Source: Nitrospira sp.
GTDB lineage: Bacteria; Nitrospirota; Nitrospiria; Nitrospirales; Nitrospiraceae
Direction of reading: 5' to 3'
Length of the DNA: 64,000 bases
Assembly: GCA_029865225.1 (NCBI GenBank)
Contig: JAOUHJ010000012.1
Span: forward strand, 1 to 64,000
The notes beneath the pieces are model-generated. The model was not told the DNA's origin, did not search any database, and was given only the letters and a program-made list of their open reading frames with translations. The position numbers and the translations under genes were made by a program. Each line of letters begins with the position of its first letter. The first letter of the stretch is position 1. Shown in pieces: positions 48,421 to 57,125 of this stretch.

Positions 48421-49053
48421 ATGAAAGCGGCGCACATTCTTCTTGCCGCGCTGAGTTTGGTTTTCACCGGGTGTGTCACACCCCCAGAGGTGAAACAAGC
48501 CCTCATCGCCAAAGACCACGCGTACATCGAGAGCCAGCGTTTGATGGAGGGATACCGTGAGCTGGTGCAGCAGGTCACCTCGCGCCATCACCAGTGGTAT
48601 CGGTATGTTCAAACTCGGCTGAAACTCAATCTTGCGCTGCAATGGGCCACGACGAATCCGAAGTTGACTGACGTCGGCGATGCGGATTTAGCCGGCGATG
48701 ATGCGGATCTATTGGGGCCTGAGGTGATCGCGCTGATCAACGACCTTCGGCTCAAGCATCTTCCGGAGCGAAAAGGGCCGACGGGGCAGGTGGTGTTTCA
48801 GGCAGGCACCGCAGATATGAACACGCTCCTACAGAAGCTCCCTGAGTTGATCGGGCGAGTGGAACAGCGTGTCGAGAAAGATTCGGCAGTGTCCTCGACG
48901 ATGGACGTGGCGGCGTTCGATCAATACCGTACGAACGTCGAGGCAGTCCGGCGGATCAACGCTATCATCAAACAATACTTGGATATCGATGTCACCTTAT
49001 CCCGCAATGAAGTGCAATCACTGGCCGAGGCTGTGAGAACGCTGCGTCGCTGA
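48421..49053 (+). CDS. Helical lipoprotein, function unknown
   Basis: SD GGAGGA region upstream; lipobox VFTGC. Confidence 0.75.
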   Translation: MKAAHILLAALSLVFTGCVTPPEVKQALIAKDHAYIESQRLMEGYRELVQQVTSRHHQWYRYVQTRLKLNLALQWATTNPKLTDVGDADLAGDDADLLGPEVIALINDLRLKHLPERKGPTGQVVFQAGTADMNTLLQKLPELIGRVEQRVEKDSAVSSTMDVAAFDQYRTNVEAVRRINAIIKQYLDIDVTLSRNEVQSLAEAVRTLRR

Positions 49054-49088
49054 GGCGGTATGTTCTGTTCGCTGGGGAGGTCAGAAGG

Positions 49089-49799
49089 ATGATGAATCGA
49101 CAAGGTGCAACCTTGGTAATCGGGTTGGTTCTCATGAGCGTGGTGGGCTGCAACTCGATTCACAGTGATGCCGTGCGCGATCTCTTGCACAAGGAAGGCG
49201 CAAAGATCGACGCGGCTCAGACGAACATCGACCTGTTTCAAAAAGAAACGGAAGAGAGGATCAAGTTCTTAGAAAAGGCCCGGAACGATTTGCACGAAGC
49301 CTTCAAGTCGCTGCGGACACACGAGACGAAGCACCAATTCGTCCTCTCGTCCTATCGCAATGTTGCGAGCAAAAAAGGCGAGGCCGCCTATGCTGCGGCC
49401 TATCTCGTCAGTCAGATCTATCTGGCTGATTACCAAGGATTGGAAAAGGCCGTGTGGGATCAATTTGAAGACGATTTCTGCGGTCTGCGCGATGCCGCAA
49501 ATGCCTTGAACGACTCCTGGAAAAAGACGGCGGCGCTCCATGCCCAATTGAGGCGCTATGCTGACAAATCCGCTCTCGCGTCGGTCGACCCTGAGTTTGT
49601 GTCCGCGTTGATCGAACAGGCTCCAGGACAGTCGGATCGTATCATGGAGATTGTCAACCACTCACGAACCGTCAATGATGCGTTAGAAGAAGTCGTGGGC
49701 GCGCGTATCGTGCGCGTGCACGCGTTGCAACGCGCCCAGACGTTGACATCCGACTTGGTGAACCTTCTGGATAACCTGAAGAAAGAAGACGGGCAATAG
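49089..49799 (+). CDS. Coiled-coil lipoprotein, function unknown
   Basis: Lipobox VVGC; helical heptads. Confidence 0.75.
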   Translation: MMNRQGATLVIGLVLMSVVGCNSIHSDAVRDLLHKEGAKIDAAQTNIDLFQKETEERIKFLEKARNDLHEAFKSLRTHETKHQFVLSSYRNVASKKGEAAYAAAYLVSQIYLADYQGLEKAVWDQFEDDFCGLRDAANALNDSWKKTAALHAQLRRYADKSALASVDPEFVSALIEQAPGQSDRIMEIVNHSRTVNDALEEVVGARIVRVHALQRAQTLTSDLVNLLDNLKKEDGQ

Positions 49800-49813
49800 G
49801 AGGAAGCACCACC

Positions 49814-50332
49814 ATGGAAACCAGTATCGCGGGGGTCGTGGGTTTTCTGGAAGACAACGACAGCCTGATCAAACAGTTGATGGAGACTGCCGAGAGCGCG
49901 CATCAGGAGATCAGCGATTTGTCTGTTCAGGTAGACCATGCTCGTGAAGAAGCGAATGGTTTGGTCGATCGGCTCGGTGCCGTGGAATTTGCGGTCGGGA
50001 AGACTGATGAAACCAGAGTCCGTCAAAAGGCGCTCTTGGAAGCAGTCGCGGCGCTGCGAAAAAAGTTCGAGACCTACAAAAACGACCCCCTTCGGCGCGG
50101 AATCTATGCGGCAGAGATTTCCAATCTCTACGTGCAGCTGGCCAATACCTTCAATAATGAGACGATTGCCCAGGTCGTCCCGTTCAGCACGGACGAAATC
50201 AAAACCTACAAAGATTTGATGAGAGAGGCGGTTCTCGACGCGGCATCTCGTAAGAAACGCGCCGCGGTCATTAAGGCTGCCGCGCGTGTTTCGAGGCTTG
50301 CGATCGGAATTGCCGGGAAATTGGCGGTGTGA
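49814..50332 (+). CDS. Cytoplasmic-type coiled-coil protein, function unknown
   Basis: SD aggagg upstream; helical composition, no signal peptide. Confidence 0.72.
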   Translation: METSIAGVVGFLEDNDSLIKQLMETAESAHQEISDLSVQVDHAREEANGLVDRLGAVEFAVGKTDETRVRQKALLEAVAALRKKFETYKNDPLRRGIYAAEISNLYVQLANTFNNETIAQVVPFSTDEIKTYKDLMREAVLDAASRKKRAAVIKAAARVSRLAIGIAGKLAV

Positions 50333-50351: not shown

Positions 50352-51125
50352 ATGCGACAGGCGTTCGTTCTCTGCATGGTTGTGGGGATTGGGAGCGGGT
50401 GCACGCTGGATGCCGGCTCACGTGGCCCCTTTGGACCTGAGGATCCGGAAACCGCAGCGCAGAAGGCCAAGTTGCCTGAGGAGGTTCCTTCTCCTCACAG
50501 TCTTCAGTTTACCGGTGAAGAGACCGCTGGGCACCACAAACCGAAAATGGTTGGTGTTTCTGGAGAGACAGCCGTGAAGCGGGCTGTCAATGAATCGGTC
50601 GTGCTGACTGCCGACGAGGTGGCGACCTTCCGAACGGTGGCCGAGAACGACCGAGGCGTCATTCCGCAGCTTGGGAGCCGTTGGGCCTTCATCGACGCCG
50701 ACCGGATTCCACCGGATGGCAAAATTACATTTGGCTGTTGTCGGCAGACCACCGGCCTGGTTCGCCTTGTTTATTACAGCTACAGTCAGAATGTGGCTGT
50801 CGAAGTCCGTGTGAAGAAATCAGGTGTTCTTAGTGTCGATCGGCGTGACGGGTATCAGCCACCGGAAGGTCAACAAGATGTGCAACGGGGAATCGAATTA
50901 GCCAAAGCGGACCCTCGTCTGGTCGGTAAAGTCGACCAACTACAAGGGCACGGACTTCTGATGCAGCCTGATCAGGGATTCTTTCGAAATGATCCGGGCT
51001 ACGGCCATCGGACGATATGGATTACGTTTTCAGAGGGACAGGGCGGTGATCCCAAATTTTGGGCGGTTATTGACCTCACGGAAGATAAAGTTCTCGAGGC
51101 CGGTGAAGAGCCGCCTCGTTCGTGA
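50352..51125 (+). CDS. Lipoprotein resembling copper amine oxidase N2/N3 domains
   Basis: Lipobox GSGC; LTADEVATFRTV, late region GYGHRTIWITFSEGQGGDPKFWAVIDLTEDKV; directly precedes the CuAO catalytic-domain-like gene. Confidence 0.55.
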   Translation: MRQAFVLCMVVGIGSGCTLDAGSRGPFGPEDPETAAQKAKLPEEVPSPHSLQFTGEETAGHHKPKMVGVSGETAVKRAVNESVVLTADEVATFRTVAENDRGVIPQLGSRWAFIDADRIPPDGKITFGCCRQTTGLVRLVYYSYSQNVAVEVRVKKSGVLSVDRRDGYQPPEGQQDVQRGIELAKADPRLVGKVDQLQGHGLLMQPDQGFFRNDPGYGHRTIWITFSEGQGGDPKFWAVIDLTEDKVLEAGEEPPRS

Positions 51126-51135
51126 GAGGAGGGTG

Positions 51136-52116
51136 ATGAAGAGAATCTGTTCTATCGGTGTCTTGCTGCTCTGCATGTTTTCCTGGTTGGGAACGGCTTT
51201 CGCCGAGACACAGTCCGAACACGTGACCTGGGGGCCGTGGAGTTTCGACTGGGAGGTTCGGGACAACACAGGGCTCGCACTGCGAAACGTGAAGTACGCC
51301 GATGAGCTGATACTCGCCAAGGCCAGTATGCCGGTGGTTCGTGTGAAGTACGTCAAGGAGCGGGTCTGGTGGAATCCGTTTACGTGGTTCGGCTCGCGTG
51401 CTGATAGCGGGCGATGTGGACCATTTCAAGACCGGCTGCGGTGGCAGGATCTGGTTCCGATCCTGAATTGCGGTGATCAAAAGGTCTGCATAGAAAGCTC
51501 AACCCAGAATACCGCGAAGTGGCTCGAGGTGGGCATCTATGCGCGAATTGGCGAATATCATCTGTATCAATCATGGCATCTCTCGGAAGATGGGGAAATC
51601 CGTCCCGTGCTGCATAGCCGAGGCCTATCGTGCAATACCGACCATGATCACCATCCCTATTGGCGTTTCGACTTTGATATTAACGGGAATGGAATGGACC
51701 AAGTCTTTGTACATGAAGACGGCGGGGCAGATTATGGATGGGGTCCAGGGTGGAGGAAGTACACGAATGAGCGAAATGATGTCAAGATTCCTGTGCTCAA
51801 CAAGACGTGGTTGATTCGTGATCAACTGAACGGCCACGGGGTCTGGGTGATCCCCGGTACAGGGTACGATCCATTAAAGGACGATGGCGAGCGGGACAAG
51901 TTTGCTGATTTCGATGTGGCCATCCGTCGCGCCAACGTGAGCGAGGATGTGCCATGGAGCTTTGGAGCACGCGGCCAACTTGGGTATGACGAAGACAATC
52001 AAGGTGTCCAAGAGCAAGACATTGTGTTCTGGTACGTGGCTCATCTCCCCCATAGAGCTGCCCTGGGTCCGACGAAATGGCTGACCCTTGGACCCATCCT
52101 CCGTGTGCAGCGGTAG
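51136..52116 (+). CDS. Secreted copper amine oxidase catalytic-domain-like protein
   Basis: Signal peptide ending AFA; FDWEVRDNTGLALRNVKYADELILAKASMP; GEYHLYQSWHLSEDGEI; HDHHPYWRFDFDINGNG; QDIVFWYVAHLPH. Confidence 0.72.
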   Translation: MKRICSIGVLLLCMFSWLGTAFAETQSEHVTWGPWSFDWEVRDNTGLALRNVKYADELILAKASMPVVRVKYVKERVWWNPFTWFGSRADSGRCGPFQDRLRWQDLVPILNCGDQKVCIESSTQNTAKWLEVGIYARIGEYHLYQSWHLSEDGEIRPVLHSRGLSCNTDHDHHPYWRFDFDINGNGMDQVFVHEDGGADYGWGPGWRKYTNERNDVKIPVLNKTWLIRDQLNGHGVWVIPGTGYDPLKDDGERDKFADFDVAIRRANVSEDVPWSFGARGQLGYDEDNQGVQEQDIVFWYVAHLPHRAALGPTKWLTLGPILRVQR

Positions 52117-53052: not shown

Positions 53053-53601
53053 TTACTTCGACGCCTCCCCACTGGATGGAAACAGAATGTAGGGCTTGGG
53101 CGGTTCCTGATCCGGTGGGAGGTAGGTGGGTGCCGGTTCGCCGGCTGGTCCAAGATGTCGGATGAATCGATAGATCGCTCGCAAGTCTTCATCCGTCATT
53201 TCGCGCAGGACGAACCAGGGCATTGGAGGGCGAAACTCGACGGCGCGTGATACCTGGATCCACTGGCCTTCCGAGAGATTTTGCATATAGAGCCGTAAAT
53301 TGCTTGCGTACGTTGTTCCCCAGGGACCACGCCAACCGATCGAGTCTCCTTTGAGCCAGTCTTGCTCAGGTATCTTTCCAGCCGCTTCTGCATAGCTGGT
53401 AGTATGGCAGTCGTTGCAGCCGGCAATCTTGATGAGATACCGACCTCGCTCCTCGGTCTTTTTGTCCAATTTCTTGTCCAAGGGCGGCTTCACTTGGCCC
53501 ATGTTCTGGCCTTTGTCTCCCGCGGCCTCCGCATCCGTCATCACGGGTAGCATCAGAAATAGACAGAGAAGTGAAGTTAGAACGGTGTGAGCAAGGGGCA
53601 T
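53053..53601 (-). CDS. Secreted monoheme c-type cytochrome
   Basis: Signal peptide; CNDCH heme motif; later Met residues in MPWFVLREMTDEDLRAIYRFIRHLG. Confidence 0.88.
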   Translation of the reverse strand: MPLAHTVLTSLLCLFLMLPVMTDAEAAGDKGQNMGQVKPPLDKKLDKKTEERGRYLIKIAGCNDCHTTSYAEAAGKIPEQDWLKGDSIGWRGPWGTTYASNLRLYMQNLSEGQWIQVSRAVEFRPPMPWFVLREMTDEDLRAIYRFIRHLGPAGEPAPTYLPPDQEPPKPYILFPSSGEASK

Positions 53602-54155: not shown

Positions 54156-57125
54156 GTGATGAAAGACTGGCTCTTTGATGACATCCGCTACGCCGATCGG
54201 TTCCGTCTCTTCGTTCAAGGTCTTCATGATGAATGGGGTGGTGGGGATTCGGTAGCGGAGGAGGAAGAACTTCCGTCTCCTCCCCAGAATGTTCAGGCCA
54301 AACCCGGCAACGGACGTATTACGATTACATGGGATTCGGTTCCGGATGCCATGTATTACAACCTCTATTTTCAGACGACGAAGGGCGTACAGATCAAGTT
54401 TTCCGAGCTGACCCGTCCGATTGCCAGCTCCGACGATTTCAAGAGTGTCATCGGTGTGAAAAAAGAGAAGGCCAGCTGTATCGAAGGTCCGACCAGTCCT
54501 TACGTTCACGACGACCTTGCGAATGGGACCTGTTATCACTATGTGGTCACTGTGGTGACCTCGAAGGGAGAAAGTCCTGAATCGCAAGAAGTGATGGCAA
54601 TTCCGTCGCCGTATCTCCTCTCGATGGTGATTGGTCGGGAAGGTGTGGAGGATGGTGAGCTCAGCTCCCCCACGGGGGTTGCGCTCGACAAGGACGGCAA
54701 TATCTACGTGGCCGATACCGACAACCATTCGATCCAAAAATTCGACAAGACCGGAACGTTTTTGGCTCGATGGGGGGGTGAGCCCAGTTCCCAGGAAGGG
54801 CAGTTCTATTATCCACGAGGGCTGGCGGTTGGACCGGACGATGTTGTGTATGTGGCTGATAGCGGAAATAACCGTGTGCAAAAGTTCGATTTGGAAGGCA
54901 ATGTGCAGAAGGCCTGGGGCAAGTTTGGGTTTGCCTGGCGCGGTGCCGATATGGGCCGCTTCGACGTGCCGTGGGGACTCACGACGGATCAAGACGGGAA
55001 TGTCTATGTGTCTGATACCAGCAACTCGCGCATTCAAAAGTTCCAAGCCGATGGCCAACCGCTGTTGAAATGGGGACGCGACGGCAGCTTCGACGGGGCA
55101 TTCTTTTTCCCCCGCGGTGTGGCGGTGGATTTCGTCGGCAATATCTATGTCGCCGATGAGAGCAATAACCGTATTCAAAAGTTCGATACCCGCGGCAGCT
55201 TTTTGACGAAATGGGGTCGCGAGGGAAATGGACCTGGACAGTTCAAGTCGCCGTGGGGCATCGCGTGCGATGCACTCGGGAACGTCTATGTCGTCGATAG
55301 TGGAAATCACCGAATTCAGAAGTTCGACGGCAACGGAACCTTTCTCTGCTCGTTCGGCAATCGAGGGAAAACCGAGGGGCAGCTCAATTTCCCCTATGGG
55401 ATCGCAGTGGATAAGGAAGGGTGCGTCTTCGTCGTCGATAGCGGCAATAACCGCGTGCTCAAGTACATACCGACTGAAGAAGAAATGAATCGTGGTAAAG
55501 AGCAGCCGACGCAGGTAGAGGAGGTCGGATCAATACAGCCACCCCGCAGTCTTGCGGTGAAGGCCGGCGATACGGAGGTTTTCCTGAGCTGGATGGAAGT
55601 GCCGGGCGCCCAAGCCTACAACCTCTATTTCAGTACCTCTCCTCATCTCACGATACAAGGAGCGACCAAGATCGAAGGCGTGACGAATCCCTATACGCAC
55701 GAAGGTCTTACGAACGATACCCCTTATTTTTATGCGGTGACGGCGTCATTCGAAGATGGGGCGGAAAGCGGCTTATCGGAAGAAGTGACGGCGACGCCTG
55801 TCCTGATTGATATCACGGCACCGCAGAATCCGTATGCGGTGATCAACCACGGAGCGTTCATGACGAACTCACCGGATATCGTCGTGACGATCTCAGCCAC
55901 CGATTTAGACACGGGGGTCGGCGCCTATTTCATTTCGGAAAGCCCATTGACTCCCATGGCCGGTACTCCGGGGTGGGTCGAGGTGACACCGGCCATCAAG
56001 TTTGGGGCGACCATTCCCTTTATACTGTCCCCTACGGACGGGCAAAAAACGATTTACGTGTGGTTTAAGGATGTCGGCAATAATGTCTCGACACCAGCGA
56101 CCGCGACCATTCTGGTCAATACGTCCGGATATCTGTGTGTGGCGAAATGGGGGAAGCCGGGTCGTGGCGCGTCGCTGTTACATGGCGGCGAATTCATGGC
56201 ACCCATGTATGGACTCGCCGTGGATCAGCAGGGATCGCTGTTTGTCGTCGACAACGGCAACAATCGCATTCAGAAGTTCGATAACGCTGGAAACTTCATT
56301 ATCCTCTGGGGGAACTTCGGGTCGGCGAACGCCAACTTTCACAATCCGACTGGGATGGCCTGCGACGGGAAAGGCGATGTCTGGGTGGTCGACACGAACA
56401 ATCATCGCGTGCAAAAGTTCGATGGCAAGCTTGGTGGATATCTGATGAAATTCGGCTCGCGTGGGAACGGCGAGGGGCAGTTTAATGCCCCGTGGGGGAT
56501 CGCGGTCGACCGTGTACGTGGCTACCTCTATGTCGTCGACAGCGCAAATTTCCGTGTACAAAAGTTCGACATGACGGGCGAGTTCATCATGGCCTGGGGC
56601 AGCTTTGGGAATGGCGATGGGCAGTTCTATTTTCCGCGCGGCGTGGCCGTCGATCAGGAGGATGGATCGGTCTACGTCGTCGACATGGGGAACCATCGCA
56701 TCCAGAAATTCGACACCAGTACCAATGTGTTGCCGCAGTTGTTGACGAAGTGGGGAGGCAGTCCAGCTGCCGGGCATGCCAGCAGTCCGTTGGCACAGGA
56801 AGCCGGTCAGTTGCGCTCCCCTTGGGGAATTACCGTCGATGGGGCCGGCGACGTGTACGTGACAGATACGGGCAATCACCGCATCGAAAAATTCGACCGT
56901 GAGGGGAATTTCATCACGCAATGGGGCGGGTTCGGAAACGGTGACGGGCAATTCAATTTTCCCTATGGGATTGCGGTCGATGCGAAGGGGAGTGTCTTTG
57001 TCGTCGACAGCGGCAACACGCGCGTGCAGCAGTTCATGCCTGCGGAAGAGGGCAGTGAGCGGTTGCAGGATGAGGCCGAGGAGCTGGCTGAGTTGGAGAA
57101 GGCGCAACGAACCCAGAAAGTCTGA
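54156..57125 (+). CDS. Multidomain NHL-repeat beta-propeller protein with fibronectin type III domains
   Basis: Twelve repeats of the [24 protein letters not shown] type in two groups of six; FN3-like segments before each group. Confidence 0.93.

What the first reader, a model, noticed from the sequence alone, without database searches (positions are those of the whole stretch)
50352..52116. Split, divergent copper amine oxidase with an altered cofactor motif
Seen in sequence: the 51136-52116 protein has a signal peptide and a series of segments in the order expected for the copper amine oxidase (CuAO) catalytic domain. These include WEVRDNTGLALRNVKY and ADSGRCG near the catalytic Asp region. 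HDHHPYWRFDFDINGNG carries an HxH at the same spacing to the RLDxDxDG-like strand, and DIVFWYVAHLPH has a His 7 residues after the Trp. The segment GEYHLYQSWHLSEDGEI aligns with GNYDYIFDWxFxxDGxI, so the Tyr at the topaquinone (TPQ) position (codon 51556-51558) is kept. The consensus Asn before it is Glu and the Asp/Glu after it is His. The preceding gene (50352-51125), a lipoprotein, looks like the N2/N3 domains. Inference: a two-gene CuAO-like protein with a membrane-tethered non-catalytic half and a separate Cu-binding half. It may form an unusual cofactor, or act as a copper carrier or pseudoenzyme.
Basis: partly seen in the sequence, partly recalled or inferred. Interest (0 to 1): 0.82.

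Follow-up and report, generated by a model that had tools for sequence, protein, structure and literature searches.

The report
Two-piece copper amine oxidase in Nitrospira
Two neighbouring genes of a Nitrospira nitrifier, a membrane-anchored lipoprotein and a secreted enzyme-like protein, are the two halves of a copper amine oxidase that is one chain elsewhere; together they may let these bacteria oxidise amines outside the cytoplasm, a capacity that published gene surveys say nitrifiers lack.

Summary
The 51136-52116 protein (P2) is a compact, divergent copper amine oxidase (CuAO) catalytic domain. Pfam PF01179 matches at E 1.2e-8, above the curated cut-off. Profile-profile probability to 11 canonical CuAOs is 98.3, and the predicted fold's best PDB matches are all CuAOs. 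The topaquinone (TPQ) tyrosine (Y141), three copper histidines (H170, H172, H306) and the TPQ-binding tyrosine (Y72) are present in all 49 sequences compared. The preceding lipoprotein (P1) has no Pfam hit, but profile comparison (95.3 %; shuffles at most 0.7 %) and predicted fold both return the CuAO N2/N3 domains. P1 and P2 occur together in 51 of 396 Nitrospirota genomes; three more keep only P2 fragments and no P1. In most Nitrospiraceae loci they sit in a five-gene cassette with three coiled-coil genes. A two-gene form also occurs on a Microvirga plasmid. The Asn-Tyr-Asp consensus reads Glu-Tyr-His here, but one two-gene paralogue keeps Asn-Tyr-Asp, so split and motif change are separable. 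Kept catalytic residues and strong purifying selection argue against a pseudoenzyme. Activity, cofactor and the P1-P2 complex are inferred, not shown.

The parts
50352..51125 (+). P1: lipoprotein carrying the N2+N3 domains of a copper amine oxidase (residues ~81-165 N2-like, ~166-253 N3-like)
   Evidence: Profile-profile vs 11 canonical CuAO N2+N3 regions: prob 95.3, E 2.1e-8, 168 columns; 60 column-shuffles at most 0.7 %; vs catalytic domain 0.4 %. N3 half alone 85.6 %, N2 half alone only 8.2 % but in the right place. AlphaFold topology is two tandem helix-plus-four-strand units; Foldseek top 25 PDB matches are all CuAOs, best E 3.7e-5. Lipobox Cys17 conserved. No Pfam hit. Exact start codon uncertain.
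51136..52116 (+). P2: secreted compact CuAO catalytic domain (326 aa, signal peptide about 1-23)
   Evidence: PF01179 34.7 bits, cut-off 27; PDB profile search: AGAO E 6e-7, E. coli TynA 7e-5; hhalign 98.3 %, 276 columns; Foldseek best E 7e-11, 50 listed matches all CuAO. Ribosome-binding-site-like gaggagg just before the ATG.
51556..51558 (+). Y141, the topaquinone-precursor position, in G-E-Y-H instead of consensus N-Y-D/E
   Evidence: Aligns with AGAO Y382; Tyr in 49/49 sequences; preceding residue E (25), Q (4), A, H or N (1 each) in 32 split-form sequences.
51643..51651 (+). H170-x-H172, first two copper ligands (AGAO H431/H433)
   Evidence: 49/49 conserved; register.
52051..52053 (+). 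H306, third copper ligand (AGAO H592), seven residues after W299
   Evidence: 49/49 conserved.
51349..51351 (+). Y72, equivalent of the strictly conserved Tyr that hydrogen-bonds TPQ (AGAO Y284)
   Evidence: Aligned; 49/49 conserved.
51430..51432 (+). D99 in CGP[F/Y]xD, best candidate for the catalytic base (AGAO D298); assignment uncertain
   Evidence: Invariant in 38/38 split and short single-chain sequences; loop alignment to canonical enzymes is ambiguous.
48421..49053 (+). lp210: lipoprotein, probably coiled coil, first gene of the conserved cassette
   Evidence: lp210-lp236-cc172-P1-P2 conserved in nearly all Nitrospiraceae loci with enough flank.
49089..49799 (+). lp236: second coiled-coil lipoprotein of the cassette
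   Evidence: only weak, mostly coiled-coil family matches.
49814..50332 (+). cc172: coiled-coil protein without an evident signal peptide
   Evidence: only weak coiled-coil family matches.

Best explanation
P1 and P2 together are a two-subunit copper amine oxidase of the cell envelope. Shown: P2 is homologous to the catalytic domain and P1 to the N2/N3 domains, and both genes are inherited and lost together. Inferred: both are exported; P1 is lipid-anchored and docks on P2 as N2/N3 do in one-chain CuAOs. P2 binds Cu(II) through H170, H172 and H306, converts Y141 to topaquinone by self-processing, and oxidises primary amines to aldehyde, ammonia and H2O2 with an Asp (probably D99) as base. The ammonia would be available for assimilation or cross-feeding. 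The Glu and His that flank Y141 replace the Asn and Asp that position the quinone and probably tune cofactor formation and turnover.
For: Homology of P2. Homology of P1: with negative controls. Active-site residues Y141, Y72, H170, H172 and H306 conserved in 49/49, D99 in 38/38. P1 is found in exactly the 51 of 396 genomes with substantial P2; the three genomes with P2 remnants only (G097, G204, G265) have no P1. The genes are adjacent (10-base gap) in the window, and P1 lies directly upstream of P2 in the Nitrospira orthologues. Purifying selection: P2 pN 0.08-0.24 with synonymous sites near saturation, pS 0.71-0.88. Two-gene form in Microvirga. One-chain relatives hold both parts in the same order. 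TPQ still forms in Asn mutants (PMC9491219; PMC3382800).
Against: No experimental activity, metal or quinone data. N2 half of P1 is weak when tested alone. Model confidence is moderate (pLDDT 63 and 62). The complex was not modelled. The consensus residues around the Tyr are changed, and in HPAO Asn404Ala gave only 5-10 % TPQ. The catalytic base is not securely aligned. No dedicated amine-uptake or aldehyde-dehydrogenase gene is conserved in the cassette.
Confidence: 0.66

Rival explanations
1. A lysyl-oxidase-like cross-linker: the split enzyme oxidises lysines of the co-conserved coiled-coil envelope lipoproteins (lp210, lp236) rather than free amines, stiffening or linking the cell envelope or microcolonies.
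For: lp210, lp236 and cc172 travel with P1-P2 as a five-gene cassette through the Nitrospiraceae, and stay nearby even where P1-P2 is inverted (L081, L084). Some CuAOs act on protein lysine (for example Pichia PPLO, matched).
Against: Family-f2 and Microvirga pairs lack recognisable copies of the three partner genes. cc172 has no evident signal peptide. No direct evidence on substrate.
Confidence: 0.14
2. A copper-binding or redox pseudoenzyme: copper is bound but Y141 is not converted to TPQ because the Asn and Asp neighbours are gone; P1-P2 serves copper storage, delivery or signalling.
For: E-Y-H or Q-Y-H replaces N-Y-D in 29 of 32 split sequences; P2 is short and lacks the canonical segment after the third His.
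Against: Y141, Y72 and an invariant Asp would have no reason to be kept; a two-gene paralogue has N-Y-D (L071); TPQ forms in AGAO N381A, if slowly.
Confidence: 0.14
3. Altered cofactor: a different post-translational product forms at Y141, for example a Tyr cross-linked to another residue (an LTQ-like adduct), giving different chemistry.
For: The residues on both sides of the Tyr differ from the consensus in nearly all members.
Against: Nothing here shows any modification.
Confidence: 0.05
4. Artefact: one CuAO gene broken by a frameshift or misassembly.
For: The two halves are adjacent and on the same strand.
Against: Same organisation in dozens of genomes including finished ones (L048); P2 has its own signal peptide and ribosome-binding site; no stops inside; Microvirga shows it independently.
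Confidence: 0.01

Closest known systems
Canonical bacterial copper amine oxidases (AGAO from Arthrobacter globiformis; E. coli TynA; Pfam PF01179 with PF02727/PF02728)
   Same: Catalytic fold, TPQ Tyr, three Cu His, TPQ-binding Tyr, W at Tyr+6, N2/N3 domains in the same order.
   Different: One chain of about 640-750 aa; consensus N-Y-D/E; about 100-residue larger catalytic domain with a long C-terminal segment after the third His. Here two genes, P1 lipid-anchored and P2 secreted, with E-Y-H.
Short one-chain CuAO-like proteins of about 540-560 aa (L072-L075 in Nitrospira; Variovorax L091; Nonomuraea L092)
   Same: Nearest relatives of P2 outside its own family (hhalign 99.9 %); same catalytic residues; N-terminal part resembles P1 (82 %).
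   Different: One chain, no evident signal peptide, W-Y-R at the TPQ site. They form a separate clade (100/99 support).
Divergent two-gene Nitrospira paralogue L071 (G200) and its near relative L070
   Same: Same family; L071 has a full P1 partner directly upstream.
   Different: L071 has N-Y-D and L070 H-Y-D; C-terminal P-domain (L071) or anchor-like tail (L070); only a C-terminal piece of P1 is seen beside L070.

Membership tests
Copper amine oxidase | PF01179 catalytic domain above curated cut-off | tested here: met
   34.7 bits vs 27; 31/31 members hit it.
Copper amine oxidase | CuAO beta-sandwich fold | tested here: met
   50 listed Foldseek PDB matches all CuAO, best E 7e-11; model pLDDT only 63.
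Copper amine oxidase | Three copper-binding histidines | tested here: met
   H170, H172, H306 in register with AGAO H431, H433, H592; 49/49. 3D convergence not measured.
Copper amine oxidase | TPQ-precursor Tyr | tested here: met
   Y141 = AGAO Y382, 49/49.
[quoted passage not shown]
   E-Y-H in the window protein; N-Y-D only in L071 among split forms. Consensus as given in PMC3382800.
Copper amine oxidase | Conserved catalytic-base Asp | tested here: inconclusive
   D99 invariant 38/38 but loop alignment to AGAO D298 ambiguous.
Copper amine oxidase | N2 and N3 domains | tested here: met
   On a separate gene (P1); N3 firm, N2 weak when tested alone. Pfam does not detect them.
Copper amine oxidase | Single polypeptide holding N2, N3 and catalytic domains | tested here: not met
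   Two genes throughout the split family.
Copper amine oxidase | Quinone cofactor and amine oxidation | not testable with these tools
   Needs protein.

The most novel reading that the evidence does not exclude
A two-subunit copper amine oxidase in which a lipid-anchored N2/N3 subunit carries a free catalytic subunit whose TPQ site naturally works without the conserved Asn and Asp (E-Y-H, Q-Y-H, A-Y-H), possibly with altered cofactor chemistry or with lysines of the co-encoded coiled-coil lipoproteins as substrate.
Probability: 0.3. Interest if true: 0.8.

Novelty: new variant of a known kind. Interest (0 to 1): 0.62.

Why it matters
Every CuAO of known structure that these proteins matched is, to my knowledge, a single chain. 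A natural split, conserved across Nitrospira and present elsewhere, suggests that the N2/N3 and catalytic parts can function as separate proteins and offers a way to study what N2/N3 do. The E-Y-H site is a natural counterpart of the Asn and Asp/Glu mutants made in AGAO and HPAO, so the role of the consensus can be tested in an evolved background. For ecology, a published survey of 70 nitrifier genomes found no complete putrescine catabolism and no methylamine-use genes (PMC10753782). This pair is barely visible to standard annotation: NCBIfam's best match for P2 is 19 bits against a cut-off of 651, and P1 has none. It could therefore have been overlooked as a route from amines to ammonia in nitrite oxidisers and comammox bacteria.

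Tried and rejected
Pfam and PDB sequence searches with P1 gave nothing; the link came only from profile-profile and fold comparison. PF02728 search of 59 relatives found none. Viral contigs and phage records have no relative, so a phage origin is not indicated. The frameshift artefact was rejected. A link to ammonia oxidation was rejected: the pair occurs with and without amoA, and the window's own genome has no amoA match. D90 as catalytic base was rejected in favour of D99 by conservation. The PF00652 ricin-lectin hint (E 0.044) is below cut-off and isolated. Literature searches for a split CuAO or for CuAO in Nitrospira found no description; one paper mentions a transcribed 'amine oxidase' in Ca. 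Nitrospira without saying which (PMC11327836).

Full report
What is there. The window lies in a 4.12-Mb genome whose named near relatives at this locus are Nitrospira. Two genes, 50352-51125 (P1, 257 aa) and 51136-52116 (P2, 326 aa), follow each other on the + strand, 10 bases apart and in different reading frames.

P2 is a CuAO catalytic domain. Pfam Cu_amine_oxid scores 34.7 bits against a cut-off of 27, and all 31 aligned homologues hit it. A profile of those 31 finds AGAO in the PDB at E 6e-7 and E. coli TynA at 7e-5. hhalign against 11 canonical CuAOs taken from plasmid records gives 98.3 % over 276 columns; 60 column-shuffled versions reach at most 4.1 %. The AlphaFold model is of moderate confidence (pLDDT 63), but its 50 listed PDB matches are all CuAOs.

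P1 is the N2/N3 part. It has no Pfam or PDB sequence match. hhalign against the N2+N3 regions gives 95.3 % over 168 columns, against at most 0.7 % for 60 shuffles and 0.4 % for P1 against the catalytic domain. The N3 half is strong alone (85.6 %); the N2 half is weak alone (8.2 %) but lands in the N2 position. The model shows two successive helix-plus-four-strand units, and the best 25 Foldseek matches in the PDB are CuAOs, with a clear gap to the next. P1 has a conserved lipobox Cys, so membrane tethering is likely but inferred.

Active site. In 49 sequences (32 split, 6 short one-chain, 11 canonical) Y72, Y141, H170, H172, R177, W299 and H306 never vary. Because the loop before it differs in length, the match of D99 to AGAO D298 is not proven. 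The residues flanking the Tyr are E and H in 25 split sequences, Q and H in 4, A and H in Microvirga, H and D in L070, N and D in L071. L071 is a two-gene paralogue, so the split does not require the altered motif. In HPAO the equivalent Asn-to-Ala change leaves 5-10 % TPQ (PMC3382800). In AGAO it slows TPQ formation 180-fold and kcat 160-fold, yet TPQ still forms (PMC9491219). TPQ formation here is therefore plausible but must be measured.

Distribution and selection. P2 occurs in 54 of 396 Nitrospirota genomes and P1 in 51; the three-genome difference is exactly those with only a C-terminal scrap of P2. Cassette order lp210-lp236-cc172-P1-P2 is kept in the Nitrospiraceae even where the outer neighbours differ, and in L081 and L084 the P1-P2 pair is inverted relative to the other three. 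Family-f2 genomes have P1-P2 without the three. The pair is found with and without amoA. P2 shows strong constraint (pN 0.08-0.24 with near-saturated synonymous sites). Outside the phylum, a two-gene form is on a Microvirga ossetica plasmid. The tree puts the split forms in one group (99/96), next to the short one-chain forms and far from canonical CuAOs; several rows have long branches, so details within it are unsure.

Mechanism and limits. The most likely working model is an exported two-subunit amine oxidase with copper and TPQ. Shown: homology, domain assignment, residue conservation, co-inheritance, constraint. Inferred: export, complex, copper, TPQ, substrate. A cross-linking role on the co-encoded coiled-coil lipoproteins is the most interesting rival; a pseudoenzyme is less likely because the whole catalytic set is kept.

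Novelty. It is a CuAO by fold and catalytic residues, but fails two usual features: the N-Y-D/E consensus and the single chain. I therefore file it as a new variant of a known kind. No description of a split CuAO turned up in the searched open-access library, which does not cover subscription journals.

Noticed in passing
48421-50332: Three genes (lp210, lp236 lipoproteins; cc172 coiled coil) conserved with P1-P2 as a cassette in Nitrospiraceae; no known family.
   Followed up: partly
L087, L088, L089 (G204, G265, G097): Apparent losses: neighbouring genes kept while P1 and most of P2 (and other cassette genes) are gone, leaving a C-terminal P2 scrap. The system is dispensable.
   Followed up: partly
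L080 (G036): P1 and P2 each look broken by a frameshift in this copy; decay or assembly error not resolved.
   Followed up: no
L072-L075, L091, L092: A separate one-chain CuAO-like family of about 540-560 aa without evident signal peptide and with W-Y-R at the TPQ site, in Nitrospira, Variovorax and Nonomuraea; annotated hypothetical where annotated.
   Followed up: partly
L091:7272-9077: In Variovorax the one-chain CuAO-like gene is followed by a galactose-oxidase-like protein, another copper radical oxidase type.
   Followed up: no
L090:7881-10070: Microvirga P2 has a glycine-zipper-like insert in the loop before the AGPYSD motif and a long C-terminal run of repeats; the public annotation starts this gene downstream of its likely start.
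   Followed up: partly
P2 residues C94/C166 and C112/C118 (window 51136-52116): Two cysteine pairs appear and vanish together across split forms (L070/L071 lack C112/C118, Microvirga lacks all four), suggesting two disulfides.
   Followed up: partly
53053-53601 (-) and 54156-57125 (+): Cytochrome c (PF00034) and a large NHL-repeat-like protein downstream; kept near the pair only in close relatives.
   Followed up: no
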